NCBI GenBank assembly: GCA_030154445.1 | Contig: JAGUQW010000012.1 | Location: forward strand, 1 to 64,000 | Origin: Spirochaetota bacterium | GTDB lineage: Bacteria; Spirochaetota; Brevinematia; Brevinematales; Brevinemataceae | Length of the DNA stretch: 64,000 nt | Direction: 5' to 3' | In this document: one piece after another, positions 25,609-48,723 of the stretch | How the letters are laid out: each line of letters begins with the position of its first letter | Numbering within the stretch: the stretch's first letter is position 1 | Made by a program: the position numbers and the translations under genes | Notes under the pieces: generated by a model | The model's input: the letters and a program-made list of their open reading frames with translations, nothing else | Databases searched by the model: none | Told to the model about the DNA's origin: nothing

Positions 25609-25609
25609 G

Positions 25610-26098: not shown

Positions 26099-26176
26099 AA
26101 TTATGTTATGTAGTATACTTATCAAAGACAGAATTACTACTTTCCTCCATGTGATTTAATCGTTTTATATATAAAA

Positions 26177-26204: not shown

Positions 26205-26227
26205 GATTTGTGATGTATTCATAAAAA

Positions 26228-26774: not shown

Positions 26775-26884
26775 ATTTCCCTCGCTTTTATAACTTTTTT
26801 TTAGTTAAATTTTTTCTTTATCTATAATTAATAAGATAAATACCAGGATCTTTATCTTTTGATTCCCTACATGATAAAGTTTTG

Positions 26885-27373
26885 TTACTCTTCATTATAT
26901 TCATTCTGTAAAATCTGTAATTCTGATTTTTTAGTTTGAATGGCGATTTTGAGAGAGTCTTGTAAAGAACTATTGTCATCTAATTCAGCATCAATATAAA
27001 TATCTTTTAAATCTTTTATTTCTTGTTCTTTTTCTTGAATAGCTTGAGCAAATGTTTTGACAGAATTTTCTTCAATAGGATATCGATTGGGATATTTTTC
27101 TTGTAGTTCTTCCTCTGTAAGATCACGAATTATTTTGCCGTCTAAAATCTGATCTTCTCCGAGAATGATTAAATTCTCTGCGACTAATTCAGAGTTTGGT
27201 CGAAGTGTACCCATATCAGTATACTTATTAATATTTTGTCCTTTACTAAGATCATTACTAAAAGGATAATTTTTGTAGTCTTCGTTTTCTTTTAGATATT
27301 TATATATATTTTGTTCTGTAGTATCTATCAATCTTGTAATCAAGTTTGTTTCTATATTGTATAGTGCTTTCAT
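26885..27373 (-). CDS. Prophage tail-fibre-associated protein (assembly chaperone-like)
   Basis: It starts MKALYNIETNLITRLIDT and has a helical C-terminal third (EKEQEIKDLKDIYIDAE). Position directly after the fibre gene (7 bp) and the size of 162 residues match tail-fibre assembly proteins, but the similarity is in outline only. Confidence 0.5.
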   Translation of the reverse strand: MKALYNIETNLITRLIDTTEQNIYKYLKENEDYKNYPFSNDLSKGQNINKYTDMGTLRPNSELVAENLIILGEDQILDGKIIRDLTEEELQEKYPNRYPIEENSVKTFAQAIQEKEQEIKDLKDIYIDAELDDNSSLQDSLKIAIQTKKSELQILQNEYNEE

Positions 27374-27380
27374 ATTTTAT

Positions 27381-28430
27381 TTATCCTATTCTTTTCCAAA
27401 TTTTCATAAGCATATTTATAGATCTATTCTCTGTTGATGTTCTTGCTTGTTGTGAGTTATCAAAATTTACATTAGTTGATTCTCTTAGAGAATCCTCTCT
27501 CACAGACCCACTTCTTACTGAGGATACAGAACCAGTAAATATACCTTTAAATCCCAGATAAAATTGTCCTGAATTTGTGAGTCTAGTGTTAAGTACCCCC
27601 GTCAATCTCTGCATAGCGTCGAATTGGATACCAGTAGATGCATCACGATTCTCTGCAGATAGTCCACCCTCAGTACGGAAGAAAACACCTTTGTCTGTAA
27701 AGATTTGTTCCCAGTCCCCACCAAACAAAGATCTTGGTGTTTCTGTGTCATCAAATAATCCTGTAGTTTCATCAGGATATTGCGTGTAGGTGGACTTGAT
27801 AGGGTAAGCCATATCTCTAATCGTATCAGCAAAAGATTTTTTGTTGATATTAAAGATATCTGCATCAATATTGGCTATTGTCGATTCAGATGATTTTTCT
27901 GTAGAAAAGGAATGAGTTTTTTCTATTTGTTTTTGCAAATTTTGAAATTTAACTCCTGTTGTTTTGATATCTATAATAGAGCTACTTGTTAAGATAATAG
28001 AGGCGAGTATAAAAGTATCTTTGTCAAGAGTCTCTCCCGTGATAAATTCTACACTAGGGGCGAAACTGGTATATATTTCGTTTCCTAAAGAGTCGTTAAC
28101 AGGATTAGACAAAATATAAGATCCTTTGATACCTAATAAAATTGTTTGTGTTTCTATATTAGATTTTAGAGGCATTAGATCTATAGGAGTAGAATTTTCT
28201 GAAATCAATCTAACACCGTTAGTATCAAAAGCAACTCCAGGATCGATAGTAATTAAAAAGTTATCAGTCTGTTGTATTTCAAAACCATGAAGGATACCAT
28301 ACCCTAATAAATCTGATACTACTAGATTGTTATTTTTATCAGAATAGTCCTGTAAACTATTCAAATTTTTGGCAACAATTTTTTGACCTTGATAAAAGTT
28401 TTGTCGAATATTATTATTATTATTAGACAT
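27381..28430 (-). CDS. Prophage tail fibre / collar-type receptor protein
   Basis: The N-terminal 160 residues form a beta-rich module with GYGILHGFEI and TIDPGVAFDTNG, common at the baseplate-proximal end of Mu-like fibres. The C-terminal part contains LFGGDWEQIFTDKGVFFRTEGG, a tail-collar-like motif, and a Ser/Arg-rich end that should reach the host surface. AAGGAG precedes the ATG. It is last of the structural genes, as in Mu and P2. Confidence 0.75.
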   Translation of the reverse strand: MSNNNNNIRQNFYQGQKIVAKNLNSLQDYSDKNNNLVVSDLLGYGILHGFEIQQTDNFLITIDPGVAFDTNGVRLISENSTPIDLMPLKSNIETQTILLGIKGSYILSNPVNDSLGNEIYTSFAPSVEFITGETLDKDTFILASIILTSSSIIDIKTTGVKFQNLQKQIEKTHSFSTEKSSESTIANIDADIFNINKKSFADTIRDMAYPIKSTYTQYPDETTGLFDDTETPRSLFGGDWEQIFTDKGVFFRTEGGLSAENRDASTGIQFDAMQRLTGVLNTRLTNSGQFYLGFKGIFTGSVSSVRSGSVREDSLRESTNVNFDNSQQARTSTENRSINMLMKIWKRIG

Positions 28431-28623
28431 ATAAAAATTCTCCTTTAGAAAAATATAAGTGGTAGTACATAAGTTATGCGAAGTAAATCGAATAAGAAAA
28501 AGAAATGTAGATTGATGAAAAATAATATATAAATAATATATAATTAAAGAAATAGAATTTTCTTATATTATTGTATTTGAATAGTATATATTTTCAATGG
28601 TTGAGATTTAAAAAGTGATATGT

Positions 28624-29355
28624 TTATATATCAAGAAATGAATTGATCTCACATATTTCATCTTTATCATCTAATACCCAATCATCTAGGATAAAAGCAT
28701 TTATATGATATCCAATATGAGCAGGCTTGTACAAATCAATGATATTGTCTAAATATATTTTTTCAGCCAATCTTATAGGATTGTTCCCAAAATCTACTAC
28801 AAAATAATAAGATGAGACATCATTTCCTAAAATCACATTTTCATCTAATTGTTCTTCTCCTAGAACCCAATCTTCTGTATAAAGTTCTCTTATGTCAAAT
28901 TTTTTTGGTAGAAGAGTAGGATCACTATTAATCACATTGTCAATAATATTTCTTAATCCTGTAAGTGTTGATGATGCCAATAAAAAACGATGTGCATTTA
29001 TAATACGGGATTGAAACTGTTCCTGACTTTCATCTTTCATTTTGTACAATCCTCTTTCCGTAGCAAATTTTGTAAGATCTGCGTCAAATCTAGAATCTTT
29101 AGGGGGAGGTAGGGTCTCCATATAGTTAATAATATCTATACTATTACTAGGAAAACTACTACTCAATATAAGAGCTCTTTCTTTATAAACTTTATCACAA
29201 TGATAAGCAATAATTTCAAAAAAATTAGTTATTGATGAGGGGTTTGTGTTTTCGAATGAATTTGATGAAAAATTGTTTTTGAGAGGATAAGATAGATTTT
29301 TGAATAAATTAGTAATAGGATTTCGGTGATACATTTGGATAAAAATGTTTTTCAT
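28624..29355 (-). CDS. Baseplate protein, Mu gp48 / tail protein I-like
   Basis: The middle part (ETLPPPKDSRFDADLTKFATERGLYKMKDES then a helical region ending in TLTGLRNIIDNV) has the layout of the gp48/YmfQ group, which links gpJ to the fibre. The C-terminus has IGYHINAFILDDWVLDD. The ATG at 29355 has AGGAC upstream; a longer frame from 29421 overlaps the J gene by about 50 bp. The order J, gp48, fibre is that of Mu. Confidence 0.7.
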   Translation of the reverse strand: MKNIFIQMYHRNPITNLFKNLSYPLKNNFSSNSFENTNPSSITNFFEIIAYHCDKVYKERALILSSSFPSNSIDIINYMETLPPPKDSRFDADLTKFATERGLYKMKDESQEQFQSRIINAHRFLLASSTLTGLRNIIDNVINSDPTLLPKKFDIRELYTEDWVLGEEQLDENVILGNDVSSYYFVVDFGNNPIRLAEKIYLDNIIDLYKPAHIGYHINAFILDDWVLDDKDEICEINSFLDI

Positions 29356-29368
29356 AGTATTAGTCCTG

Positions 29369-30457
29369 TTATGAATTATAGATCGTAATATCTGTGTCAG
29401 CGTTGATGTTTTGACGAGCAATTTGAATGTCAGATATATTAAAAGTTGTAGACGGCGTGTTAATCACAACAGATTTGATTTCAGGTAATTTAAAAAAATG
29501 AGCTATCAATGCCGATGGTTCAAAATTTTGACCAATAAATTGATTCATAAAAAATTTTTCAACTTGTTCTTTGATAGCATCTTTATTTAATGTACTATAT
29601 GTATATAAAGTTATATTAAGCGGTACAAAAACTTCTACAGGTGCTTTTACTACAATGTCTGTTGCTATAGGTTTTCTGGAATCAATCACTTGCTGTACAC
29701 TGTGAATGATTTCAGGACTTGCTTGTATATTATTAATACCTGTACAAACAATTAATATTTCTCCTAATTTGTTTTCAGGAGTACCAATAACCTTTACATT
29801 GCCTACACCAGATACTGATTTCGCCCAAGCTACATACGCTTCTTTATTAGCACCACTAAGTCCTTGCCAAATAGATAAACATCGAAGTCTCAATTCCTCA
29901 TCATTTTCTTCTTCTCTACCTAATCTTACAATCCATTGAGTGCTATTATTTATAACACTATCAACACCTGAAATAGTAGTAATAAATTCTGTTATGGTAT
30001 TAATAGGAACATTGTACCTACTGCCATATTCTTCTGCTTCAACCAAAACACTAAGCGTTTTTTCTTTAGCTATAAAGAGTACATCATCAACTACTTTAAA
30101 TCTAAATACTTGTCCCTGGGTATTTGGTTTTGTGGCTATAATTTTATTTTTATCAATAGGGATAGTATCATCAGCTTTATTTCTACTAAAAACAACATAA
30201 CCTTGTGTTTTTTGAGTAAGAAAACGATTTTCTATACCTAATTCTTTTGATTTGATAGTAAGACAATCTCCAGAAGCTGTTTGTACAAATCTATTGGCTA
30301 ATAAGTCGTCTGATTCTTGATATAATTTTTCTAAAAAACTAGCAATTATTTCAATAAACAATCGAAATACACCACCAGATTTGAAATTAGAAACTTGAGG
30401 TATTTCTTTTTTACACTGTTCAAAAATTTCTGAGGCTATGCTTTGTCTGGTTTTCAT
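29369..30457 (-). CDS. Baseplate J / Mu gp47-like protein
   Basis: Baseplate wedge protein of contractile tails. Seen: the N-terminal helix, the QTASGDCLTIKSKELGI region, and the middle motif LRLRCLSIWQGLSGANKEAYVAWAKSV, which is the hallmark RR..R...... G....Y..WA of gpJ. GVGNVKVIG follows. Length 362 is normal. AAGGAT precedes the ATG, and a hairpin separates it from the tail tube gene. Confidence 0.88.
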   Translation of the reverse strand: MKTRQSIASEIFEQCKKEIPQVSNFKSGGVFRLFIEIIASFLEKLYQESDDLLANRFVQTASGDCLTIKSKELGIENRFLTQKTQGYVVFSRNKADDTIPIDKNKIIATKPNTQGQVFRFKVVDDVLFIAKEKTLSVLVEAEEYGSRYNVPINTITEFITTISGVDSVINNSTQWIVRLGREEENDEELRLRCLSIWQGLSGANKEAYVAWAKSVSGVGNVKVIGTPENKLGEILIVCTGINNIQASPEIIHSVQQVIDSRKPIATDIVVKAPVEVFVPLNITLYTYSTLNKDAIKEQVEKFFMNQFIGQNFEPSALIAHFFKLPEIKSVVINTPSTTFNISDIQIARQNINADTDITIYNS

Positions 30458-30479
30458 AAAATATCCTTAATAATAAATA

Positions 30480-30512
30480 TTTTCCCCATAAATAAAATAG
30501 ATATGGGGAAAA
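30480..30512 (-). terminator. Hairpin after tail-tube gene (partial terminator)
   Basis: TTTTCCCCATA pairs with TATGGGGAAAA around an 11-base loop, followed on the minus strand by a weak T-rich stretch. It may reduce expression of the baseplate genes relative to the tube. Confidence 0.5.
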
Positions 30513-30520
30513 TAATTGAG

Positions 30521-30991
30521 TTAGTTTAGGTATGCTGCTCCTCGAGCTGCTCTGCCATTATGTCTTACATTGTCTAAGATTAAAAAATCTAAAGAAACTT
30601 TTAATTCTTTATCTCCTTGATTGGCTGATTCAGATACTTTTGTAAATCTAATACCTGTTAGTGTCGTTGTACTTAACGGAATACTACTATCAAAAGAATT
30701 TCCATAAAGAACATTAATATGAGTATTTCTTGGATCCATATTAAGAATTCCGTTTGGTACAATTAGAGCAAGTGCTTCAAATTCATTTTTAAGTAATGAT
30801 ATTTTACCACTAGCTTTCCAATTGCCTTTGCCAAAACCAACAGGAACACGACCTTTACCATAAATAGCCTCTGCTTCGAATTCTTCATCCCAAGATATCT
30901 CTTTTGCTGTAAAAATTGCTGGTGTTAATGGTAGTAAAGATATAGTAATATCTCCCCAATCAAATGTTTTTCCGTTTATTAAAATACTCAT
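30521..30991 (-). CDS. Tail tube protein
   Basis: It has 156 residues with a beta-rich core: an ITISLLPL strand, SWDEEFEAEAIYGKGRVPVGFGKG, then NWKASGKISLLKNEFEAL and a C-terminal DLKVSLDFLILD-type strand. This matches tail-tube proteins of the XkdM/Mu gpM kind that form the inner tube of contractile tails. It follows the sheath gene, as in all such phages. Confidence 0.8.
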   Translation of the reverse strand: MSILINGKTFDWGDITISLLPLTPAIFTAKEISWDEEFEAEAIYGKGRVPVGFGKGNWKASGKISLLKNEFEALALIVPNGILNMDPRNTHINVLYGNSFDSSIPLSTTTLTGIRFTKVSESANQGDKELKVSLDFLILDNVRHNGRAARGAAYLN

Positions 30992-31051
30992 AAGATCCTC
31001 TTCAGCAATAGTATTGCTTGTATAATTATTTTTTAGTTGTAATTAGAAAGA

Positions 31052-32419
31052 TTAATTACTCTGATTATATTTGAACATGAAATTTAGATTAATTGTTCTA
31101 ATAATAGGGATACCAAACAATTCAATATTTAGTAGTACACCATTATTAACTACATCTTGATCTGTTGGTAAATCAATTTCAAAATCATCAAGTTCTTTTG
31201 GTGTGTTTGTTACCATAGTATCAATAGCAGATCTAACTTCAGTTAGTAAGTTTTGTAAACCAATAGAATCACCATTACTTTGAATATATGGTAAAGCTGC
31301 TCTGCGAGATAATTTAATTGCTTTAAATACAGTACGAACGATTTCGATAAAACGATAATCTGATTTATCACTAGCTAGTGTTCTTCCGTTAGTCCAGAAT
31401 AGATTGTTTAATCCTGCATAAGTACGAAGAGTGATCAAACGGCTTTCATCCAAAGATCTTGAATGAGTGTTATTCCAATTATCTAATAATTCAAAATCAT
31501 AAATAGCAAAATTATTGGTAGCTCCAATACTTTGATTAACATTAGATTTTGTAAGATGTCCTGCACACAATCCTGCTACTGATCTTTTGACTTTCCCTAC
31601 AGAAGTGATAATATAACCAGGTTGACAAACAACAGAGACAAAACGAGCATCAATTTTTGCAAATTCTGTTTTTTTGTCAGCGATTGCTTCCTCAAGAGAT
31701 CTTGTTATGTCAAGATCTGTTTCTGTTAAAAATAATACTGGTTTATGATCTTCAAATAATCTTTCAGAAATAGATCCCAAAGATTTTACAAATTCTCCAT
31801 TGACAGATTGTGCAATAAATACAAATTCTGGTGTGTATATTTCAAGAGCTTGAGTAATTACAGCTTCTAATACTTTCAAAGAAGAAGTTGGTGCTATCGT
31901 AGAAAATGACCAAGAGTTTGCTGAAGTATAAATAAGATCTTCGTCAATAGGAAATACAATAGACAAACCAAGATCATCCCTAGTAATAATTCCATCTATA
32001 GGAATAATAACAGACTCTTCGTGAACTTTATCACCTGTTGATGCTATCGTGACTTCTACTGTTCCTATTGTACCTTCATTACTGACAGTGATCTGAATAT
32101 CTGATGTATAAGACGGTGTTCCTATAGCAGTGATCACCGTATTTCCAATTGTCTCAACAGTTGAAATAGTACCAAGTATATCACCTTCTGTTGGTAATGC
32201 TACAATACTTACATCAGCCATAGTTTTTTGCATATCGAGGATACGATTAGGCATTTCACCATATCCTAATATGGATTCTACATTTGATTTTTTACCTATG
32301 CTCAGAGCTTTGTTTAAAGACCCTTTGGAAGATGTTCCAACAACAATAGCTTTAGGCCCATTGTTTGAATTTAATCCACTTGTTCCATCTGTGATTTTTT
32401 CGTTGACGCTTGACCACAT
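31052..32419 (-). CDS. Contractile tail sheath protein (DUF2586-like)
   Basis: The C-terminal half shows the sheath pattern: VAGLCAGHLTKSNVNQSIG, then RTYAGLNNLFWTNGRTLAS and RFIEIVRTVFKAIKLSRRA. The N-terminus (GPKAIVVGTSSKGSL) is the strand that joins neighbouring sheath subunits. Length 455 fits Mu gpL-type sheaths. AAGGAG precedes the ATG. Together with the tube gene it proves that this is a contractile-tailed phage. Confidence 0.88.
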   Translation of the reverse strand: MWSSVNEKITDGTSGLNSNNGPKAIVVGTSSKGSLNKALSIGKKSNVESILGYGEMPNRILDMQKTMADVSIVALPTEGDILGTISTVETIGNTVITAIGTPSYTSDIQITVSNEGTIGTVEVTIASTGDKVHEESVIIPIDGIITRDDLGLSIVFPIDEDLIYTSANSWSFSTIAPTSSLKVLEAVITQALEIYTPEFVFIAQSVNGEFVKSLGSISERLFEDHKPVLFLTETDLDITRSLEEAIADKKTEFAKIDARFVSVVCQPGYIITSVGKVKRSVAGLCAGHLTKSNVNQSIGATNNFAIYDFELLDNWNNTHSRSLDESRLITLRTYAGLNNLFWTNGRTLASDKSDYRFIEIVRTVFKAIKLSRRAALPYIQSNGDSIGLQNLLTEVRSAIDTMVTNTPKELDDFEIDLPTDQDVVNNGVLLNIELFGIPIIRTINLNFMFKYNQSN

Positions 32420-32462
32420 AATTGTCTCCTTTTTAGTGTTATGTATATACTATGATAAATTG

Positions 32463-32966
32463 TTATTTGCTTGGGGTAACATTGACCGTAACATCTTTGA
32501 TGATGGTATTGTCCGTATTATCTGATCTTATAGCATAGTTAGCATGTAAGCTTAACTGAGCTGTATTAAATCCTAAAACACCTTTGGCGAAAAAGTATTC
32601 CAAGTCTATAGGCGAAAGTGAAATAACACTGTGTTGAATGATAAATTCTTTAGGCAATTGCACCAGAAAATTATGAACAATATCATCAAGTTCACTCTTA
32701 TCTATAAATTCAAAATTAATAACAATAGGTTGAATTATATTGTATTTGCGTTGAATTTTGACGAGGAATTTCCCATGAGGTGTTGATTCGTAATATTGAT
32801 TGTCCCAATACCATGCAGGGCTAAGTGTGGCTTTGGAGGGGAGTATACTTATCCAAGGCCGTGCCAAGTTTGGATCAGGAGTATCTATCAATATCATCTC
32901 TTCAGCAATAGAAGAGCTATTAATAAGTACTTCTTTGAGGTGTTGTTGAATGGCAATAATCATCAA
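32463..32966 (-). CDS. Prophage structural protein, Mu gp37-like (putative)
   Basis: It has 167 residues and a mixed alpha/beta pattern with RPWISILPSK and PAWYWDNQYYES. No clear family. Its place between the gp36-like gene and the sheath is that of Mu gp37, a head-tail or tail-terminator component. AGGAG precedes the ATG. Confidence 0.5.
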   Translation of the reverse strand: MMIIAIQQHLKEVLINSSSIAEEMILIDTPDPNLARPWISILPSKATLSPAWYWDNQYYESTPHGKFLVKIQRKYNIIQPIVINFEFIDKSELDDIVHNFLVQLPKEFIIQHSVISLSPIDLEYFFAKGVLGFNTAQLSLHANYAIRSDNTDNTIIKDVTVNVTPSK

Positions 32967-33112
32967 GAACTCCTAAAATTGTTTTTCTGTATTTCTGAGC
33001 CTTGCTTCGTTATGTTAAGTGGAAGGTATGTTTTACTTTTTTTTGGAAGTTAAGGAGAGATAAAAATATAAATTGAGACTCGTTCTACATTACATAGAAG
33101 AAAATAAAAATC

Positions 33113-33538
33113 CTAAAAATTATTTTGAACCAAAGGACTCTTAGGGAAATAGTAAGAAGGATGAACAGGAGATGAGCCTGAGGAAATAATACCGATATCA
33201 AGTTTTCCAGTCGCTATTTGTTCAAGTTGTTTGATAGCAGAATCTCGATTGACTTTGATAGAGTAGTCCGCAGAATCTTCTGTAAAACCTTTGCGGGAGA
33301 GTAGTTGATAGAGAGATAATTTAACACAAATATCCCTCAAGGAAAGTGGTATAAAAGGTAGAGGAAGAGAATGTTGTTTGCAAATATAAAGATTCATCTC
33401 TTCAGACGAACGAGAAATTGCAGAAATGATACGAGGAGTGAACATTTCAGAACTTTCTCGGCAATCATTTTTTGCCCAGCTTTCTATGGCGGATTGAAGA
33501 CAAGCTTCGAAGAGATCTTCCTTGTGACAATAAAGCAT
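33113..33538 (-). CDS. DUF1320 / Mu gp36-like connector protein
   Basis: The pattern of residues 25-90 (PRIISAISRSSEEMNLYICKQ, SLPLPFIPLSLRDICVKLSLYQLL) is that of DUF1320 proteins, helical head-tail connectors in Mu-like phages. Length 141 is normal. AAGGAG precedes the ATG. The gene stands after the gp46-like gene instead of after the capsid, so the order differs from Mu. Confidence 0.75.
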   Translation of the reverse strand: MLYCHKEDLFEACLQSAIESWAKNDCRESSEMFTPRIISAISRSSEEMNLYICKQHSLPLPFIPLSLRDICVKLSLYQLLSRKGFTEDSADYSIKVNRDSAIKQLEQIATGKLDIGIISSGSSPVHPSYYFPKSPLVQNNF

Positions 33539-33547
33539 AGTAGCTCC

Positions 33548-33919
33548 TTATAAATTGATATTTTGAGAGTAGGTGAGCGAGACGATATCGTTATTTAGAG
33601 TGGTGTAAAAAGAGATAGAAACAACAAGATCTTGCGTCTCTTCAATAGTTATAGAGATAGTATTAGTGATGATGTTGGGATCTTTGGAAAGGATAATTAT
33701 TATATCTTGTTCTATACTGAGTTTAGTGTCATAGTCGCGGGGTGATTGTATAAAAGATAAAATAGAAGAACCTAATAAAGGATCATAAAACCAAGTACCA
33801 GGAGAGGATTGTAAGACGAGGGATATATTTTGCTGGATAGAATCATTATCATAAACAAGCTCAAGATCATCCACTCCAAATACAATATCTCCGTTTGAAA
33901 GTTTGATATCAGAAAGCAT
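33548..33919 (-). CDS. Baseplate protein, Mu gp46 / gp25-like
   Basis: It starts with DIKLSNGDIVFG and DDLELVYDNDSIQQNISLVLQSSPGTWFYDP, the typical beginning of gp46 proteins where a helix follows two strands, and continues with a mixed core. This is a wedge component related to T4 gp25. AAGGAG precedes the ATG. It follows the tape measure gene by 15 bp. Confidence 0.8.
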   Translation of the reverse strand: MLSDIKLSNGDIVFGVDDLELVYDNDSIQQNISLVLQSSPGTWFYDPLLGSSILSFIQSPRDYDTKLSIEQDIIIILSKDPNIITNTISITIEETQDLVVSISFYTTLNNDIVSLTYSQNINL

Positions 33920-33933
33920 ATAAACTCCTTAAA

Positions 33934-35067
33934 TTAAGCTGATAAAGAATGATATTTGATATATTGAATAAGATCTTCCATATCTGAGATCACGCCATCA
34001 GCAATATCAATATTAGCTATATTATAGACGGTTTGATTGTTGTGGGTGCTTTGAGAGGAAGAGATAGATTCTTTATAGAGTTGGTGGTTATTAGCTATGG
34101 CAGTAGGAATATGGACAGCATGTTTGTCGATATTCGGTGACAAAGAAGGTAGGACAGCTTTATCATTATTCGATATACCTAATGTATTAGCAGGTTTTTG
34201 AGGAGCGATTTTGTCGGTGGTGTTTTTGTTGAATATTTTGTTAACAAAGCCCCCAGCGAGCGATTTAATTTGATCGATTTTGTCCAAGATCCAAGTAATC
34301 GTCTTGGTAACAGGCTCTAAAAATTTATCAAGATTAGGGAGATCAGAGAATTTATTTATTAAGGAAGTCCAAGCATTTTTTATATGATCAATATTAAAAA
34401 TGATAAGCGCAAAAACACCTACAATAGCAGCGATGACAAGAGCGATAGGCCCCAAACCAACAAGCCAAGCAGCAGCCATCTTCAACCCTGCCATCGTAGC
34501 CGACAAGCCGAGTCTCGCATAAGTGGCAATGACTGTGCCGATAGTGCCAATAGCGGGTAGCAGTGATACGCTTATCTTGGTAGCCATACTAGCCATCTTC
34601 ATTAGTGCTGTTCCCATTATCGCTACGCCCATTTGAGCGATACCCTTTATCGCTGTGCCACTCATTTTAGTGATATTCTTTATCGCTGTGCCTATCTTGG
34701 CAGTATCTATATTAGGAATACCCACCTTAGGACTACCCATCTTGTCAGCACCTCCCTTAAATAGTCCACCAACACCAACACCAAGTGATGCTACACCAAG
34801 TACAATATTTGCTATGTCGAACCCCTCAGCTTTCTTTGAATCTTTGTTTACACTTGTTGTAAATGTAGTAAAATTATCATTAAATTTAGTAAAATTATCA
34901 TTAAATTTAGTAAAATTATCAGTAAATTTAGTAAAATTACTATTTAATGTATCAAAATTACTATTTAATTTATCAAGAGATTTGGACATAGTGCTTAATA
35001 TAGGGGGAGGGGAAAGCCCCTTTAGTGTACTAAGAATCTCCGTGAGGACTTGAGTATCTGTAGACAT
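33934..35067 (-). CDS. Short tail tape measure protein
   Basis: The length of 377 is short for a tape measure, so the tail should be short. Residues 25-75 are heptad repeats (FTKFTDN, FTKFNDN and variants) of coiled-coil type. Residues 80-130 carry repeats such as KIGTAIKNITKMSGTAIKG, and 150-235 are hydrophobic helices, the usual membrane-active region of tape measures. The start at 35067 has AAGGAGACA upstream. The first 25 codons and upstream sequence are duplicated at 35524-35685. It follows the tail-chaperone genes, as expected. Confidence 0.8.
   Translation of the reverse strand: MSTDTQVLTEILSTLKGLSPPPILSTMSKSLDKLNSNFDTLNSNFTKFTDNFTKFNDNFTKFNDNFTTFTTSVNKDSKKAEGFDIANIVLGVASLGVGVGGLFKGGADKMGSPKVGIPNIDTAKIGTAIKNITKMSGTAIKGIAQMGVAIMGTALMKMASMATKISVSLLPAIGTIGTVIATYARLGLSATMAGLKMAAAWLVGLGPIALVIAAIVGVFALIIFNIDHIKNAWTSLINKFSDLPNLDKFLEPVTKTITWILDKIDQIKSLAGGFVNKIFNKNTTDKIAPQKPANTLGISNNDKAVLPSLSPNIDKHAVHIPTAIANNHQLYKESISSSQSTHNNQTVYNIANIDIADGVISDMEDLIQYIKYHSLSA
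34850..34975 (-). repeat. Heptad-coding repeats in tape measure gene
   Basis: The 21-bp unit AGTAAAATTATCATTAAATTT (plus strand) occurs several times with small changes and codes for seven-residue units such as FTKFNDN on the minus strand. Copy-number change would lengthen the coiled coil in steps of seven residues. Confidence 0.8.
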
Positions 35068-35157
35068 GAGTGTCTCCTTAAAAAAAATTTCCCAAAAAAG
35101 GATAAAAATATTGACAAAAACAGGTTAGTGTAGGTATAATAATGATATGAATAAAAA
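34996..35157. repeat. 162-bp direct repeat, copy A
   Basis: 160 of 162 bases are identical to 35524-35685 in the same orientation. On the minus strand it holds the tape measure's ribosome site and first 25 codons. On the plus strand it holds a sigma-70 promoter. Confidence 0.95.
35111..35140 (+). promoter_or_regulatory. Sigma-70 promoter of moron gene
   Basis: TTGACA (35111-35116), 18-bp spacer, TATAAT (35135-35140). The start of transcription would be near 35147, about 24 bases before the ATG of the moron gene, and it points against the surrounding prophage operon. Confidence 0.75.
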
Positions 35158-35170
35158 TAGAGGAATGGAT

Positions 35171-35446
35171 ATGGAAGAGCAACCAAAAAGAGATAACACT
35201 TTATTAATAGTGTTGATGATAGTAGCAATATGCTTTTTATTAGTAAAATTAGGAATGCATATAGCATATTATCAAGAGCTTAGTGCGAGAGAGATCGAGC
35301 TTAGCGAGCAAGCACGAGACGCGAGCGAGCGAAGCGAGCGAGCGAGCGAAGCGAGCGAGCGAGCGAGCGAAGCGAGCGAGCAAGCGAGCGAGCGACTCGA
35401 GAGATCGAGAGAGGAGTTTAAAAAAAAGTGGGGCGAATACCCATAA
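35171..35446 (+). CDS. Moron: membrane-anchored Ser/Glu/Arg/Ala-rich protein
   Basis: It has 91 residues on the strand opposite to all late genes. Residues 9-34 form one membrane helix (TLLIVLMIVAICFLLVKLG), followed by a polar helix with repeats of SERASEA and ASEQ that should form a coiled coil. The coding DNA of this part is a run of GAGC/GCGA words with much higher G+C than its surroundings. I prefer the ATG at 35171 with AGAGGA 6 bases upstream over that at 35147. It has its own promoter and terminator, the definition of a moron. Function is unknown; a superinfection-exclusion membrane protein is one possibility. Confidence 0.65.
   Translation: MEEQPKRDNTLLIVLMIVAICFLLVKLGMHIAYYQELSAREIELSEQARDASERSERASEASERASEASEQASERLERSREEFKKKWGEYP
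35281..35402 (+). repeat. GC-rich GAGCGA/AGCGAGC repeat tract
   Basis: About 120 bases are made of GAGC, GCGA and GAAGCGAGC words. The plus strand is almost free of T, so it is purine-skewed and G+C-rich in an otherwise AT-rich region. Confidence 0.85.
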
Positions 35447-35491
35447 TCTTAGTCTCGTGATGAGATATATCTAAAAGTGATAATAATATAC

Positions 35492-35521
35492 AAACCCCCT
35501 TACGGATGTGAGGGGTTTTTT
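35492..35521 (+). terminator. Terminator of moron gene
   Basis: AAACCCC pairs with GGGGTTT around an intervening loop and is followed by a T-run. It lies 45 bp after the moron stop and just before repeat copy B. Confidence 0.7.
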
Positions 35522-35595
35522 CCTAATATAGGGGGAGGGGAAAGCCCCTTTAGTGTACTAAGAATCTCCGTGAGGACTTGAGTATCTGTAGACAT
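35500..35595 (-). pseudogene. Truncated 5' copy of tape measure gene
   Basis: The ATG at 35595 and the following 24 codons are the same as in the tape measure gene. The frame then runs into the moron terminator and stops after six foreign codons (31 residues in all). The ribosome site is intact, so a short peptide could still be made. It marks the original upstream copy left by the duplication. Confidence 0.8.
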
Positions 35596-35685
35596 AAGAG
35601 TCTCCTTAAAAAAAATTTCCCAAAAAAGGATAAAAATATTGACAAAAACAGGTTAGTGTAGGTATAATAATGATATGAATAAAAA
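35524..35685. repeat. 162-bp direct repeat, copy B
   Basis: Second copy of 34996-35157 with two differences, both next to the tape measure start codon (on the plus strand ATGAGTG against ATAAGAG). Confidence 0.95.
35639..35668 (+). promoter_or_regulatory. Duplicated promoter, now without a gene
   Basis: The same TTGACA-18-TATAAT as at 35111-35140. Downstream it meets a short frame of seven codons and the GC hairpin at 35689, so it should produce little. Confidence 0.6.
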
Positions 35686-35688
35686 ATA

Positions 35689-35705
35689 CCCCCAATAAGG
35701 GGGGG
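35689..35705 (-). terminator. Terminator after tail chaperone frame
   Basis: CCCCC and GGGGG flank a 5-base loop, with a T-run on the minus strand. It ends the head-to-chaperone transcript directly after the frameshift product's stop codon. Confidence 0.7.
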
Positions 35706-35707
35706 AT

Positions 35708-35944
35708 TTATTCTGGTGAAAAGGATTTTTGAATAGCACGCATAAATGCTCTATAAATAACATCTTCTAATTCAGAAAGTATTACAAGAGATTTTGCATG
35801 TAAATTTGGTATGTTAGGGTCTTCTCCAATAATTTGATCCATAGGATCTATTAATCTTATCTCTTGCCCTAAACACATATTGATACGAGATTGAACGATA
35901 TTTAAGTGGTTATTTTTGAAATCTTCTAAATATCGTTGACTATA
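35708..35944 (-). CDS. Tail assembly chaperone C-terminal extension (-1 frame)
   Basis: An open frame of 78 codons without a useful start codon that follows the upstream gene in the -1 frame. It begins YSQRYLEDFKNN and ends AIQKSFSPE. The switch point is A-AAT-TTT at 35950-35944 (minus strand), an XXXYYYZ slippery heptamer in the correct frame. This is the classical design of tail chaperone pairs such as lambda G/GT, made by programmed -1 frameshifting and placed just before the tape measure gene. I do not see a strong downstream stimulatory hairpin. Confidence 0.75.
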   Translation of the reverse strand, partial: YSQRYLEDFKNNHLNIVQSRINMCLGQEIRLIDPMDQIIGEDPNIPNLHAKSLVILSELEDVIYRAFMRAIQKSFSPE

Positions 35945-36252
35945 AAATTTTGATCAAACATATCCTTAATTGCATGTTCTAGAATATTATTAATAGATAG
36001 TGGTTTTTCTTCAATATATTGAACGAATACTTCGGAATTTTCGCCACAAAAAAGTTTACGAATAAATTTCTCAACAGGTATAAGAGGAGTATTAGTGTTA
36101 CTAGATACTTCATTTTGAAAAAATAAGATATCAGTTTTATTTGGCTTTTTGAAATAAAATACATCGCCGTTATCCGAAGTATAAGAGAACATTTTTTGAC
36201 CTTGATCTTTGAGTTCTTGTACTTTATCTGGTAGTATATTTGTTTTTTCCAT
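35926..36252 (-). CDS. Tail assembly chaperone (G-like), short form
   Basis: A soluble, mostly helical protein of 108 residues (KVQELKDQGQKMFSYTSDNGDVFYFKKPNK, then helices). Size and place between the spike gene and the tape measure fit the short tail chaperone that coats the tape measure during tail assembly. It ends four codons after ATA-GTC, just past a slippery heptamer, and a minor fraction of ribosomes should continue into the next frame. AGGAG precedes the ATG. Confidence 0.75.
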   Translation of the reverse strand: MEKTNILPDKVQELKDQGQKMFSYTSDNGDVFYFKKPNKTDILFFQNEVSSNTNTPLIPVEKFIRKLFCGENSEVFVQYIEEKPLSINNILEHAIKDMFDQNFIVNDI

Positions 36253-36270
36253 AATGGACTCCTATAGTTT

Positions 36271-36852
36271 TTATTTAAATAGCTTGTTTATTTTTTCTGA
36301 TTTGAGTGTTTTCCACTCACCTTGTTGACTTATATCTAGTGTGAGGCTGGCTGTCATTGGTGCTATTACATATGCTGGACATGAGATTGAAGCAAGATTA
36401 GTGGTTTTTAGATCAATGATTTTGTCAGCTATTTCTTTAAGAAGCTCTCCAAGATTTACTCCATTAGCTGATAAGGATATTTTATCATCCAAAATCAACT
36501 TAGTATCGCCACAAGTGATAATGAGAGTATCTTCTTTACTTTCTTCAGAATAATTACTCCCTATAATTGCTGTGATGATAGGATAATTCGTATCATTATC
36601 TAAAAAATTAAGTACAACAATAGTGTCAGGACTAGGAGCCATAAAGATCCCCCCTTTACTACTTGCCCAAAATTTGGGAATTAGTACATCAGGGTAGATC
36701 AGATTGGTTTTTTCTCCAGTTTTGGTTAATCCTATACATTTACAAGTGTAATTATCGTTATTAACTTCGCTAATTTGTGCTAATGTAGGGCTTGCAAAAT
36801 TAGTAATAGCTGACTTAATGAGATCATCAAGATGTTGTTTTATTGTTGACAT
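36271..36852 (-). CDS. Baseplate assembly protein V / Mu gp45-like spike
   Basis: Residues 18-115 have the gp5/gpV OB-fold pattern: TLAQISEVNNDNYTCKCI, then ILIPKFWASSKGGIFMAPSP and DTIVVLNFLDND, with PIITAIIG next. The C-terminal part (ISLSANGVNLGELL) is the usual short end of Mu-like spikes. It forms the puncturing tip under the hub. It overlaps the upstream hub gene by 13 bases. Confidence 0.8.
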   Translation of the reverse strand: MSTIKQHLDDLIKSAITNFASPTLAQISEVNNDNYTCKCIGLTKTGEKTNLIYPDVLIPKFWASSKGGIFMAPSPDTIVVLNFLDNDTNYPIITAIIGSNYSEESKEDTLIITCGDTKLILDDKISLSANGVNLGELLKEIADKIIDLKTTNLASISCPAYVIAPMTASLTLDISQQGEWKTLKSEKINKLFK

Positions 36853-37556
36853 GCTTGGACTCCTAATATCATTTTTATACTAGCATTGTATCTATAATTA
36901 ATACTAGTAACAAAGTATTGTTCATCTGATGAAATAACAATATCCCCGATTTCTAATTCTGGAATAGGGAATATTGAGATTTTTGATGATTCAACACTTT
37001 TTGTACAATTACTGATATTATATTGTTGAGCATTTTTTCTTTGTAAGTGATCCATGACAACTACCTGATTTTTTTTGTTAACAAAGTAGTTCATGTTATG
37101 AATACTGAGAACTTTTTTCAAATTCTCAGCTTTAGTATTTTTAAACACGATACGATTATTTGTGTGATTTGTTGCTTCAAATTTAATATTAGAAACAAAA
37201 CTATCAATAATTTGTTTTGTATCACATTTGAGAAATGTTTCTTCGTATATTTTTGAGTCTACACAATTATAATAAGCAGTAATATTTATTTTATTTGGAG
37301 AAAATGAAATATTTATAATTTTACCTTTAAAAATCAATGTTTTTTCTGTATTATTATTCTGTATAGATACAAAACAAGAATTTCCAACTTTGGGTACTAA
37401 ATTTATTTTAGAGGCATATTGATTATTAATAGTTATTTCTGCAGTGATAGTGGGATTATTTATCTCTTTTTTCACTTTAAAATTGAAGTTCGATGCTAGA
37501 TGTGTTTTATTGATTGTTAAAAAAGAAAAGCAAGATTTAATAATTTTTTGATCCAT
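36840..37556 (-). CDS. Baseplate hub protein, gpD / Mu gp44-like (putative)
   Basis: It has 238 residues and a beta-rich first half with TLIFKGKIINISFSPNKINITAY, followed by CDTKQIIDSF and NLKKVLSIHNMNYFVNKKNQVVVM, which fits the split-barrel hub of gpD proteins. The end (LEIGDIVISSDEQYFVTSINYRYN) is typical too. The order hub then spike is conserved in contractile tails. Confidence 0.65.
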   Translation of the reverse strand: MDQKIIKSCFSFLTINKTHLASNFNFKVKKEINNPTITAEITINNQYASKINLVPKVGNSCFVSIQNNNTEKTLIFKGKIINISFSPNKINITAYYNCVDSKIYEETFLKCDTKQIIDSFVSNIKFEATNHTNNRIVFKNTKAENLKKVLSIHNMNYFVNKKNQVVVMDHLQRKNAQQYNISNCTKSVESSKISIFPIPELEIGDIVISSDEQYFVTSINYRYNASIKMILGVQACQQ

Positions 37557-37568
37557 AATGAACCTCTT

Positions 37569-38096
37569 TTATATAGATTTTTTTTCTATAGAAATATCAT
37601 CTACATTGCTTTGATCGTAAGTAGGAAATACAATTTCTTCAAAAGTAATACTAATAGTAATATAATCTTTAGTATTATTTTCAGAACTATTTAAATTGGT
37701 AAAACATACTTGATTAATCCCTCGTTTGTTAATATGTGTGTTTTTAATATTATAGTAAGAGGGCATAATAGAGACTTTTTCATCTTGAGTATTACTCTTA
37801 TTTACTATTTTGTTGGAAGATTCTTCAGTATCTTTGAACAAACGCTCTAATTCTTGAAGTATGTGATAAGAAGTTTTGAATCCGTCTTTGATCAATAATA
37901 GAGAAATTGATATAGATTTTTCTTTGTAGCCGCTAGCTACTTTTTTATTTTCTGTTCCTACAGATCCAGAATTATCCCATATAATTTCACCACCTATAGA
38001 TAAACTTTGTAATATTCCAGGTAAAGGAGTTTCTTTTTTTGTAATAGTGTTAGTAAGGATTATATTAGATTCACTAGAATCATTTCTTATTTTCAT
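37569..38096 (-). CDS. Prophage baseplate/tail protein (hub-adaptor candidate)
   Basis: No clear family. The first 60 residues are beta-rich with LPGILQSLSIGGEIIWDN, and the end DYITISITFEEIVFPTYD resembles tail adaptor proteins that precede the hub gene. It is 12 bp upstream of that gene. An AAGGAA site precedes the ATG. Confidence 0.5.
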   Translation of the reverse strand: MKIRNDSSESNIILTNTITKKETPLPGILQSLSIGGEIIWDNSGSVGTENKKVASGYKEKSISISLLLIKDGFKTSYHILQELERLFKDTEESSNKIVNKSNTQDEKVSIMPSYYNIKNTHINKRGINQVCFTNLNSSENNTKDYITISITFEEIVFPTYDQSNVDDISIEKKSI

Positions 38097-38259
38097 GATC
38101 TTTCCTTAGATATTATTTTAAAATAAATATTTCTAATTATTATTCTCCTTAATAATTAGATAACCTCAGTGATGTCAAACATTGTAATATTTATTGAATT
38201 GTTAATTAATATTGTTATGATTTTGTAACTTAAAAGAATAAAAAATAATAAAGACAGTA

Positions 38260-38283
38260 CCTTCCCTTTTTGAATAGGGAAGG
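38260..38283 (-). terminator. Hairpin after major capsid gene (partial terminator)
   Basis: CCTTCCCT pairs with AGGGAAGG around an 8-9 base loop. On the minus strand it is followed by T-rich sequence. It may set capsid expression above that of the downstream tail genes. Confidence 0.55.
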
Positions 38284-38297
38284 ATACCAAAGATCAT

Positions 38298-39227
38298 TTA
38301 CAGTACATTTTTGAATAGAAATCCAGCTTCATAATTGGCAACAGCCCAACCTAATCTTTCATCAATTGCTGTTACATCACTAGTTGTTCTTTCATCAAAA
38401 TAATCTCTCATTTCAGAATAACCAAGAGGAGCTCTCACAGTAATTCCAAAGCTCAAATCTTCAAGGCTATAAATAGTATTAGGAACATAAGCAAGCACAA
38501 CATTATTTCCCCAAGTATAAGATAATTTATCCTCGTGTTGATACATATTATCTGCAATAATTACTTTATCTACAGCAATGATTTTAGCAAAATCTTCTGT
38601 AGTAATACCAGCTTTTAAACTCGTATTAGGAAGGCGATCTATAAGATTTTTCTTATATCGAAGTACTTGCCACACGGTATCAGAGATAACACATTTATTT
38701 GGATAAACGCCTATGCTATTTTTTATTTTTGTACGCGCAATTTCTATTTGTGCAATAGGATCACTAGCTGTATTACCCCATAAATTAGTCGTACTAGGAG
38801 TTGTAGTATGTTCTCCATATTTAGTTGCATCGAGGATATCTTTCACTTGAGATGCTTCTATGGAATTCATCATTTTATCATAAGCATTACGCATACGAGC
38901 TTCTCTCATTAGTAAGGAACTTTGACTAATATCAGTAGATCCAATTAACTCGGCTCTATCAACAGAACTTTCAACAGTGTATCTATGTACAGAAAGGGAT
39001 ATCCAAGATTTGATATAATTCTGTGTTCTTTTTGCTTCTGTTCCATATTCACGACGAAAATCTGAAAGTTGTAGATGTTCTGCTCCCAAATGAGCAATTT
39101 TATAAGTTTCTCTTGCGACGGTAGCTTCAAAAAGAGGCATTAATTCATATCCAAAACGAGCTTGTCTAGGATAGCTCAAAGCAAATCTTTCTAGGATTAC
39201 AGGGAAGTTATTTTCTTGAAGAGACAT
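38298..39227 (-). CDS. Major capsid protein
   Basis: It has 309 residues. The N-terminus (FALSYPRQARFGYELMPLF) and the later VHRYTVESSVDRAELIGS, NKCVISDTVWQVLRYKK and AYVPNTIYSLEDLSFGITVRAP are the usual phrases of HK97-fold capsids of the Mu-like/E type. It is followed by a hairpin and preceded by the protease/scaffold gene, the normal head order. AGGTCC lies before the ATG. Confidence 0.82.
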   Translation of the reverse strand: MSLQENNFPVILERFALSYPRQARFGYELMPLFEATVARETYKIAHLGAEHLQLSDFRREYGTEAKRTQNYIKSWISLSVHRYTVESSVDRAELIGSTDISQSSLLMREARMRNAYDKMMNSIEASQVKDILDATKYGEHTTTPSTTNLWGNTASDPIAQIEIARTKIKNSIGVYPNKCVISDTVWQVLRYKKNLIDRLPNTSLKAGITTEDFAKIIAVDKVIIADNMYQHEDKLSYTWGNNVVLAYVPNTIYSLEDLSFGITVRAPLGYSEMRDYFDERTTSDVTAIDERLGWAVANYEAGFLFKNVL

Positions 39228-39391
39228 AAGGACCTCATTAAATATATTATTTTTACTATGTTATTTTTTTAGTATGAATATTATACAACTGTCATATTAT
39301 AAAATAAGATCTCTATAAAAAATTATGGAAAATAGATTTCTTTAGTATTATTTACAGTCGTAGTATTATTTATACTAAAGTAATAACGAAT

Positions 39392-39841
39392 TTACACAGA
39401 ATTTTTACTCAAAATATTCTTAGCTTGTTTATAAGCATCGCTTCGTGATAATCCTTCTGCATAAAATTTTTCAACTTCATCAGCAAAAACAGCGCTTTCT
39501 TCTATGCTCGTAGTTTCTGAAAAATTGGCAATTCCTTTTTCTGGAGTAGGTACTTTATCTTGAAATCGATGGCTATAAATTGGTTGATAATAATCTTGTA
39601 TAAAGTCAGTAAATGAAGCGACAGATTCTTGAGGATTTATGCCTTTTTCTGATAATTTTAAGGCCTTTATCCGTACTTGCTCTGCCATTTCACTACTAAT
39701 TTTTTTGTCTACAATTATTTTTTCAATTTCTAAATCAATTTCTTTTTCAATTTGCTTTTTTTTCAATTCTTCTTTCAATTTGATAATTTCTGATAATGCT
39801 TCTTGTAATTGTATATATAATTCTTGTTCTTTTGTATTCAT
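39392..39841 (-). CDS. Nested scaffold protein (in-frame internal start)
   Basis: An ATG at 39841 with AAGGAA 5 bases upstream lies inside the protease gene in the same frame and would give a 149-residue, highly helical protein. Overlapping protease and scaffold genes of this kind are known in Mu (I and Z) and lambda (C and Nu3). This is inferred from the ribosome site and domain boundary. Confidence 0.55.
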   Translation of the reverse strand: MNTKEQELYIQLQEALSEIIKLKEELKKKQIEKEIDLEIEKIIVDKKISSEMAEQVRIKALKLSEKGINPQESVASFTDFIQDYYQPIYSHRFQDKVPTPEKGIANFSETTSIEESAVFADEVEKFYAEGLSRSDAYKQAKNILSKNSV

Positions 39842-40363
39842 TGTATTTCCTTGATTTTTATTTATTAATGACTGCTCTTTGAACACTTGTATTTTATCCC
39901 TAAGAGAATAAGGATACTCTGAGAAAAAAGCAACAACATCATTATTTTCTTCAGAAAAAGATAAGATAGTTTGTAATTTCCCTAGATTGGGAATAGCAGG
40001 TCTAGCTGCACCTAAAGCACCAACATGCCTAAGGCAATATTTACCTTGTTGAGGATTGCTAGGAGCTGTTGGTAAGAAAAAACTAGCACTAATATTTTTG
40101 AAATGATTTTGTTTAATTTCTTTCTTAAAATCTTCTGAAATATCAATAAAAGAGGCAAATAATTTATCTCCAATAATTTTTAATTTATCTATCCATCCCA
40201 TTGCTGGATCTTCATTAGTAGGATGTCCTTTTACAAGAGGAGCTGAATAGGGTTGGTAACTTTCTACTATTTCATCTAGAATTTGTGATGTTATTTGATA
40301 TTTTTTACCTGTTGCGTCTGTATAATTTCCTATTTTCAAAATAGGGATCATATGATTTTTCAT
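39392..40363 (-). CDS. Mu I-like prohead protease with scaffold domain
   Basis: The first 150 residues carry the Mu gpI pattern: a PLVKGHPTNEDPAMGWIDKL motif and ISASFFLPTAP, which should include the serine active site. Residues 175-323 are a helical, Glu/Lys-rich domain typical of scaffolds. A second ATG at 39841 would make the scaffold alone. It lies between portal and capsid genes. AGAGGT precedes the first ATG. Confidence 0.8.
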   Translation of the reverse strand: MKNHMIPILKIGNYTDATGKKYQITSQILDEIVESYQPYSAPLVKGHPTNEDPAMGWIDKLKIIGDKLFASFIDISEDFKKEIKQNHFKNISASFFLPTAPSNPQQGKYCLRHVGALGAARPAIPNLGKLQTILSFSEENNDVVAFFSEYPYSLRDKIQVFKEQSLINKNQGNTMNTKEQELYIQLQEALSEIIKLKEELKKKQIEKEIDLEIEKIIVDKKISSEMAEQVRIKALKLSEKGINPQESVASFTDFIQDYYQPIYSHRFQDKVPTPEKGIANFSETTSIEESAVFADEVEKFYAEGLSRSDAYKQAKNILSKNSV

Positions 40364-40386
40364 AAATACCTCTTTTAAATTATTGA

Positions 40387-41523
40387 TTATTTTTCTACTG
40401 ATTTTTGTATATCATTTTTGTTAAAATGGTAAGTTTTACATATATATTCTTCCGAGAATTCAAATCCCATATTGTGTAACATGGTATCTCGTTCTATACG
40501 AGATTTTTCGTCATCTTGTTCAGGTTTCCATGAAAAGATAACTCGAGAAGAAAAATTATTAATAAGACATAAGTGACGAATGAGTTTATTAATTGTTTCT
40601 GTAATAATACTTTTATCATCTTGAGTAATATCCTGTCTTACAATAGAAATACTTGTTTCATTTCCTAATTTTCCAGGAGTAGAATCCAAAGCACTAGAAT
40701 GTCCCAAAATAACTTTACTGATTTGCTTTGTACAAAGATCATAAAAGTCTTTAAATAAGTGAGAAGAGCTGTTTTTATCTGATTTTAGGATCTCTATAGA
40801 ATCAGATCCTTCGATAACCATAGCTCCAGAACTTCTAAATTCTTGAATGGCATGTAACATGGACATCTTTTTATCTTCGTTTGCTAATTCTACTCGTCCT
40901 ACAATGGAATCGTCACCAAAACGATCGATATATGATATCCATAGATCCATAGTTCCTCTTATCCATGTAGCACTCCAGAATACTCTCGTGAGTAAGCTTT
41001 CCCCATAAGGATTAATAAAAGTAGGTCTATATTGTACTAGCTCTACTTCTTTGTCTAGATCTCCAATTGTAATGTTAAGGGGCGTAGTATTGGTATGATT
41101 ACTAGGGATTAGTTGACATTTTTTATTAAAACAAAACCACTCACTAGGGAGAGAATTAATTTTGATGTACTCCCAATGATTATCAATTTTTTGTATAGGA
41201 TGTTGTAAGATTGTATACCCATACCACAGAGCATGAAATATTTCTCTAAAGATACTATTAATACCTAATTTTTCAAGATTACGAGTGATGAATTGAGTTT
41301 CTTCTTCGTTATCTCCTATAATCTCCCATGGATCACCAATAACGGCTGATTCTCTAGCAAGAATAGTACTTTGTACTTCAGGAGAATAGCTGAGATCTCT
41401 TAGAGCTTTGTGAGGAGAAACTCCATGAGTATGAAAAAAATGAAAATCAGGGTTAGGTAACTGACCCCACAATTGTAACATTTTTAATGTTTTTATTTTT
41501 TCTAGTTTATTTGTTTTAGCCAT
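40387..41523 (-). CDS. Portal protein, DUF935 / Mu gp29-like
   Basis: A 378-residue portal of the Mu family. Seen: RDLSYSPEVQSTILARESAVIGDPWEI near the start, HALWYGYTILQHP, NPYGESLLTRVFWSATWIRG and QISKVILGHSSALD, all typical of DUF935. It overlaps the terminase gene by 8 bases, so translation is coupled. The portal forms the DNA entry ring of the head. Confidence 0.88.
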   Translation of the reverse strand: MAKTNKLEKIKTLKMLQLWGQLPNPDFHFFHTHGVSPHKALRDLSYSPEVQSTILARESAVIGDPWEIIGDNEEETQFITRNLEKLGINSIFREIFHALWYGYTILQHPIQKIDNHWEYIKINSLPSEWFCFNKKCQLIPSNHTNTTPLNITIGDLDKEVELVQYRPTFINPYGESLLTRVFWSATWIRGTMDLWISYIDRFGDDSIVGRVELANEDKKMSMLHAIQEFRSSGAMVIEGSDSIEILKSDKNSSSHLFKDFYDLCTKQISKVILGHSSALDSTPGKLGNETSISIVRQDITQDDKSIITETINKLIRHLCLINNFSSRVIFSWKPEQDDEKSRIERDTMLHNMGFEFSEEYICKTYHFNKNDIQKSVEK

Positions 41524-48717: not shown

Positions 48718-48723
48718 TATTCT

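What the first reader, a model, noticed from the sequence alone, without database searches (positions are those of the whole stretch)
34996..35685. Moron cassette between two 162-bp direct repeats inside the late operon
A rightward gene with promoter and terminator sits between near-identical repeats that contain the start of the tape measure gene on one strand and the promoter on the other. One copy keeps the intact tape measure, the other a truncated copy. This is a snapshot of how a moron enters a phage operon without breaking a needed gene.
Basis: partly seen in the sequence, partly recalled or inferred. Interest (0 to 1): 0.75.

Follow-up and report, generated by a model that had tools for sequence, protein, structure and literature searches.

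The report
Backward gene slot beside tape-measure gene

Summary
In detail: 34996-35157 and 35524-35685 are direct repeats (162 bp, 2 mismatches). Each holds the first 24 codons and leader of a tape-measure gene (TMP) on the minus strand and a perfect sigma70 promoter on the plus strand. Between them lies a plus-strand unit: RBS, 91-aa protein (one TM helix plus low-complexity coiled coil), terminator. TMP-proximal R1 keeps TMP intact; chaperone-proximal R2 starts a 31-codon stub.

The interpretation needs enlarging. In 39 of 112 sampled contractile-tail phage clusters, a small TM protein is encoded antisense at this same chaperone|TMP junction (shuffles 2.5; sense strand 2/112). These genes are under purifying selection (median pN/pS 0.34). 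The ten I tested match no PHROG or Pfam family. HK97's exclusion moron gp15 uses the same slot on the other strand. Larger antisense cargo there includes an AbiJ-domain and a PLD-like protein. A second, independent repeat-cargo-repeat with a TMP-start stub exists (L120), in the same polarity. L103/L106 is an occupied/empty pair.

Best reading: a TMP-adjacent antisense moron, probably excluding superinfecting phages via TMP (inferred), with the repeats left by off-register recombination. No single-copy sister of this exact 162-bp repeat was found.

The parts
34996..35157 (.). Direct repeat copy R1 (TMP-proximal): TMP codons 1-24 and leader on -, promoter on +; keeps TMP intact
35524..35685 (.). 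Direct repeat copy R2 (chaperone-proximal), 2 mismatches to R1
35158..35523 (+). Cassette-unique segment (366 bp, 44% GC against 29% for the window)
35111..35140 (+). Promoter P1, TTGACA-18-TATAAT (12/12), antisense to the tail operon, 44 nt upstream of the TMP ATG; resembles the promoter of a tRNA-Leu-like gene of sister genome G001
35159..35164 (+). Shine-Dalgarno AGAGGA for the ATG at 35171
   Evidence: sequence
35171..35446 (+). Cassette gene, 91 aa (99 aa if from ATG 35147): one strong TM segment near residues 11-29 (KD 2.9), then Ser/Glu/Ala/Arg coiled-coil-like tail; orphan
35321..35395 (+). GC-rich tandem repeat (GCGA units) inside the gene
35496..35515 (+). Intrinsic terminator of the cassette gene, followed by TTTTTT
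35500..35595 (-). TMP-start stub in R2: 31 codons then stop
35639..35668 (+). Promoter P2 (copy in R2); only MNKKYPQ* follows before the hairpin
35689..35705 (.). Hairpin between R2 and the chaperone extension; terminator-like on both strands, better on -
33934..35067 (-). Tape measure protein, 377 aa; only residues ~186-367 match the 640-aa TMP of G003
35708..35878 (-). Small ORF, apparent frameshift extension of the tail chaperone (homologue adjoins TMP in G003)
35926..36252 (-). Tail assembly chaperone homologue (by position and similarity to relatives; no PHROG hit of its own)

Best explanation
The 35.1-35.5 kb unit is a moron in a recurrent slot: an antisense gene between the tail-chaperone extension and the tape measure gene of contractile-tail (Mu/P2-type) phages, driven by a strong host-type promoter beside the TMP start. 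Its product is most likely made in the lysogen as an inner-membrane protein with a periplasmic coiled-coil tail, and blocks superinfecting phages at DNA entry through the incoming TMP, as HK97 gp15 does (inferred). The repeat arose in one step when two related phages recombined off register: the partner with the moron gave TMP-R1-cassette, the other kept its own TMP start (R2), hairpin, chaperone extension and chaperone; the join is 35523/35524. TMP stayed intact because the moron-bearing partner brought its own TMP 5' end. Shown: anatomy, recurrence of the slot, strand bias, purifying selection on slot genes in other phages, a second repeat-cargo-repeat, an occupied/empty pair. Inferred: exclusion function, TMP as target, single-crossover origin.
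For: Anatomy. Slot recurrence: antisense TM ORFs just upstream of TMP in 39/112 clusters (shuffle 2.5; controls 1/104, 3/112, 5/97) against 2/112 in sense; antisense promoter >=10/12 at TMP start in 16/112 (shuffle 1.3; other junctions 0-2); tube-to-TMP spacing 923 against 621 bp (p 2e-11) and pN/pS 0.11-0.36 for the 25 closest pairs, median 0.34 over 108. Spirochaete relatives: L039 and L038 (antisense promoter + tiny TM ORF), L051 (12/12 promoter, ORF, terminator). Defence-like cargo: L115 AbiJ_NTD4 E 1e-17 and PADLOC PDC-S32; L120 PLD-like. Second R-C-R: L120, 128-bp repeat, chaperone-proximal TMP stub MEIFSVIASMSFVDMTNAPLRKITEQGEVPC*, intact start beside TMP, same polarity as the window. 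Module swaps: L066 (moron) against L065 (none) differ exactly from the end of the chaperone extension to mid-TMP; L103 (occupied) against L106 (empty) share the same TMP from -56. HK97 gp15, annotated 'moron product', lies between the frameshifted tail protein and TMP; HK97 hybrids with HK022 tail tube and TMP genes escape gp15 (PMC10883804). The phage lineage is under purifying selection (pN/pS 0.11-0.57).
Against: The window protein has no homologue anywhere searched; its tail is low complexity and it is bulkier than the pure TM peptides in other phages. HK97 gp15 is encoded in sense. No expression or exclusion data. R in single copy was not found, so the donor/recipient story is not shown for this locus, and L120's two copies do not separate cleanly by donor (each 81-83% to L115). 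One control, antisense to the chaperone gene, gave 17/112 TM ORFs, so part of the 39 could be compositional. The ORF thresholds were set after seeing examples.
Confidence: 0.6

Rival explanations
1. Lysis gene: the 91-aa protein is an inner-membrane spanin (Rz-like: N-terminal TM, periplasmic coiled coil) displaced into the tail operon.
For: Weak PHROG hits to Rz-like spanins, best E 0.0028; fitting topology.
Against: Hits follow low-complexity coiled-coil composition; the amidase gene lies at 25.6-26.1 kb with other small membrane ORFs; a strong constitutive-type promoter against the late operon is odd for a late lysis protein; most relatives in the slot are pure TM peptides.
Confidence: 0.12
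2. Regulatory: the promoters matter rather than the protein. Antisense RNA or promoter collision beside the TMP start silences tail genes in the lysogen.
For: Promoters sit within tens of nt of TMP starts in many phages; R2 keeps a perfect promoter with only a 7-codon ORF and a hairpin; L038 has promoter plus a very short ORF.
Against: Slot ORFs are under purifying selection at protein level; the cassette terminator prevents read-through; the promoters point away from TMP.
Confidence: 0.12
3. Tandem duplication followed by loss: a promoter-moron unit at its old place was duplicated with the TMP 5' end and the chaperone-proximal copy lost its gene, rather than two phages recombining.
For: R2 plus hairpin looks like a gutted promoter-ORF-terminator unit; 98.8% identity allows a recent intragenomic event.
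Against: Needs two events; the L120 copies differ by 20%, which suits two parents better.
Confidence: 0.2
4. Assembly artefact: the repeat comes from misassembled short reads.
For: The host genome is a draft (18 contigs); reads were not available.
Against: Two fixed differences between the copies; intact genes on both sides; the same architecture in unrelated L120.
Confidence: 0.05

Closest known systems
HK97 gp15 superinfection-exclusion moron (Cumby et al. 2012, 2015; record NC_002167)
   Same: Slot between the frameshifted tail chaperone and TMP; small predicted inner-membrane protein; terminator; annotated 'moron product' (membrane prediction and block to DNA injection from PMC10883804)
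   Different: HK97 gp15 is in sense with the tail operon; 62 aa; no sequence similarity could be tested directly; no flanking repeats noted
Morons of lambdoid phages (Juhala et al. 2000)
   Same: Extra gene with its own promoter and terminator between conserved genes
   Different: Flanked by a repeat that duplicates the 5' end of the neighbouring essential gene; antisense
Tab of phage JBD26 (PMC10884400) and Ltp of TP-J34 (PMC3952083)
   Same: Prophage proteins acting against other phages through TMP
   Different: Tab blocks assembly and is encoded between terminase genes; Ltp is a lipoprotein of a Gram-positive host phage
Prophage moron and defence hot spots (Burkholderia morons, PMC2920897)
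   Same: Different cargo at the same site in related phages
   Different: No chaperone|TMP antisense slot appeared in the passages I read or the open literature searched
Rz-type i-spanins
   Same: Predicted TM plus periplasmic coiled coil
   Different: No significant family hit; not next to the endolysin; opposite strand to the late genes

Membership tests
Phage moron | Own promoter and terminator | tested here: met
   (consensus matches, not expression)
Phage moron | Absent between the same two genes in relatives | tested here: met
   G003 C15: chaperone extension abuts TMP. Same cassette absent in all relatives searched
Phage moron | Composition differs from flanking genes | tested here: met
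   cassette 44% GC, window 29%, mostly due to the GCGA tandem
Phage moron | Expressed from the prophage | not testable with these tools
   no transcript data
HK97 gp15-type exclusion protein | Located between tail chaperone and TMP | tested here: met
HK97 gp15-type exclusion protein | Same orientation as the tail operon | tested here: not met
   cassette on +, operon on -; gp15 in sense
HK97 gp15-type exclusion protein | Small membrane protein | tested here: met
   91 aa, KD maximum 2.9
HK97 gp15-type exclusion protein | Sequence homology | not tested
   no direct comparison with gp15 was made; no convincing family hit
HK97 gp15-type exclusion protein | Blocks DNA entry, overcome by changed TMP | not testable with these tools
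   bench test needed
Rz-like spanin | Significant similarity to an Rz family | tested here: inconclusive
   best E 0.0028, low-complexity region
Rz-like spanin | Next to endolysin/holin | tested here: not met
   amidase at 25.6-26.1 kb
Transposon with target-site duplication | Transposase or terminal inverted repeats | tested here: not met
   no such ORF in the unit, no inverted repeats at its ends

The most novel reading that the evidence does not exclude
The junction between tail chaperone and tape measure in contractile-tail temperate phages is a widespread, unannotated docking slot for antisense exclusion and defence genes, mostly 34-100-aa membrane proteins linked to the TMP N-terminus they act on or spare; exchange there proceeds through conserved TMP-leader sequence and sometimes leaves a repeat with a TMP stub, as in this window and L120.
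Probability: 0.5. Interest if true: 0.8.

Novelty: new variant of a known kind. Interest (0 to 1): 0.62.

Why it matters
Gene callers tend to miss short antisense ORFs: the ten slot genes tested hit no PHROG or Pfam family, and the queries made found nothing in 50,697 phage records. If they exclude phages via TMP, one synteny rule would reveal a large set of exclusion genes together with their likely targets, directly testable by TMP swaps. The window and L120 also show how a cargo gene can be exchanged next to an essential gene without loss of function: the incoming segment brings a fresh copy of that gene's start.

Tried and rejected
Transposition with target duplication: no transposase or inverted ends, and 162 bp is far beyond usual target duplications. 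Multicopy element: cassette and R occur once in the genome; the 24-bp and 45-bp matches in G038 and G001 are an AT-rich match and a tRNA-Leu-type promoter. Structured RNA: Rfam hits are all far below gathering score. Exact promoter pattern in viral contigs: none. Single-protein scans of viral contigs with the window TMP or sheath: no relatives; the chaperone alignment found one, sheath and tube alignments many. Chaperone alignment in genome contigs: nothing. P2 (E+E' overlaps T) shows no slot; Mu has a 144-bp gap without an annotated gene. Phage Mushu's long gap looks like a TMP start annotated too late, not cargo. Decay of the prophage: structural genes are under purifying selection. I did not run a structure prediction; a TM helix plus low-complexity coil would not have been informative.

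Full report
WHAT IS THERE. The window comes from a spirochaete of the genus Brevinema: its closest relatives by search are two uncultured Brevinema MAGs. Positions 24-47 kb hold a Mu-like contractile-tail prophage (Mor, Gam, Mu portal, gp36, sheath, tube, baseplate) whose late genes run leftward. At 34996-35157 and 35524-35685 lie two 162-bp direct repeats with two mismatches. On the minus strand each copy carries the leader, ribosome-binding site and first 24 codons of the tape measure gene; on the plus strand each carries TTGACA-18-TATAAT, the only two perfect sigma70 matches in 20 kb. The 366 bp between them hold an RBS (35159-35164), a 91-aa ORF (35171-35446) and a terminator (35496-35515). 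R1 adjoins the intact TMP (377 aa); R2, toward the chaperone, gives a 31-residue stub.

THE NEIGHBOURHOOD. In G003 and in viral contigs L064, L065 and L066 the late order is capsid, gp36, sheath, tube, chaperone, chaperone extension, TMP, then (as far as each contig reaches) hub, spike, gp25, J, I; G003 C15 has its sheath and tube earlier. The window phage and its G001 sister (capsid 92%) share a rearranged order, and G001 goes straight from spike to gp25 with no chaperone-extension-TMP block there. G001 is a 79%-complete draft, so the block may lie elsewhere. In G003 C15 the extension and TMP are adjacent without a gap. The window TMP matches the G003 TMP only from residue ~186 onward, so its N-terminal half is foreign to that lineage.

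THE SLOT. Reading the chaperone|TMP junction of relatives showed the same design again and again: a promoter pointing away from TMP followed by a tiny membrane-protein ORF on the opposite strand (L039 MTIKDIFLLFSLWCGFFSLFAFIFITIIRLFKRF; L047; L066; L051 with terminator). I then collected 151 viral loci by sheath and tube alignments and reduced those with a readable tube-to-TMP stretch, plus three phage records, to 112 clusters. Antisense promoters of at least 10/12 lie at the TMP start in 16 clusters (shuffle 1.3; sense 2; other junctions 0-2). Antisense TM ORFs start within 160 nt upstream of TMP in 39 clusters (shuffle 2.5; three control sites 1/104, 3/112, 5/97; a fourth, antisense to the chaperone, 17/112); sense TM ORFs occur in 2. 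Clusters with such an ORF have 300 bp more between tube and TMP (p 2e-11), and the ORFs evolve as proteins (pN/pS median 0.34 over 108 pairs). Of the ten I tested none has a PHROG or Pfam match, and three queries found no match in 50,697 phage records.

CARGO AND EXCHANGE. Larger antisense genes sit in the same slot: L115 has an AbiJ_NTD4/DUF7014 protein (abortive infection type), L120 a PLD-like protein resembling DrmC, L103 a 166-aa protein. L103 and L106 form an occupied/empty pair: same TMP from 56 nt upstream of its start (97.8%), cargo only in L103. L065 and L066 are siblings (91% DNA) that differ precisely from the end of the chaperone extension to mid-TMP: one has moron plus TMP N-terminus A, the other no moron and N-terminus B. 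In L120 the cargo lies between two copies (128 bp, 80%) of TMP leader and start; the chaperone-proximal copy is a stub and the TMP-proximal one is intact, as in the window. Most slot genes have no such repeat.

MECHANISM. The simplest origin of the window structure is one off-register crossover between two related phages: one contributes TMP-R-cassette up to 35523, the other its own TMP from codon 24 backwards, leader, hairpin and chaperone genes. This makes the repeat and stub in one step and keeps TMP whole. For function, position is the main clue. HK97 gp15, annotated as a moron product, lies between the frameshifted tail protein and TMP, is predicted to be an inner-membrane protein, blocks DNA injection, and is escaped by hybrids with HK022 tail tube and TMP genes (PMC10883804). 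The window protein (charged N-terminus, one TM helix, then a coiled-coil-like tail) fits an inner-membrane protein with a periplasmic tail that could meet an incoming TMP. The promoter resembles the one in front of a tRNA-Leu-like gene in the sister genome, fitting constitutive expression in the lysogen. Function and target are inferences.

LIMITS. The window protein is an orphan. The exact single-copy R was not found, and L120's two copies do not sort cleanly to two known parents. Reads were not available. Sampling came from metagenomic viral contigs found by sheath and tube similarity, clustering was by shared 11-mers, and ORF thresholds were chosen after the first examples. Literature searches covered open-access text only; Cumby 2012 itself was not held.

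Noticed in passing
window 24000-43000; L036, L033, L012: The late gene order of the window phage and G001 is rearranged relative to relatives (hub/spike/gp25 block moved ahead of gp36/sheath/tube), and the chaperone-TMP block is absent from both expected places in G001.
   Followed up: partly
window 40387-41523: Portal is 378 aa against 850-909 aa (fused) in G003, G004 and L066; the gene after gp36 seen in G003 is missing in the Brevinema-genus phages.
   Followed up: no
window 34860-34972: 21-bp tandem repeats in the TMP N-terminus giving heptads NFTKFNDNFTKFND.
   Followed up: no
window 35321-35395: GCGA-type tandem repeat inside the cassette gene; open ORFs in two forward frames and probably prone to slippage.
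   Followed up: no
L065, L066: Sibling phages with swapped TMP N-terminal halves, breakpoints at the chaperone extension end and mid-TMP.
   Followed up: yes
L115, L120: AbiJ-domain and PLD-like candidate defence genes antisense in the chaperone|TMP slot.
   Followed up: partly
L103, L106, L115, L120, L135, upstream of TMP: Conserved ~56-nt TMP leader (CAAGCACCC..CGCACAGTTTCC) with an inverted repeat around the TMP start in L115/L120, where homology resumes after cargo; possible recombination boundary.
   Followed up: partly
window 50940-51154 and 54449-54673: 84% identical ~220-bp repeat in host sequence near sugar-metabolism genes.
   Followed up: no
window 8464-8603 and 48721-48855: 75% identical inverted ~140-bp repeat pair on either side of the prophage-containing region.
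   Followed up: no
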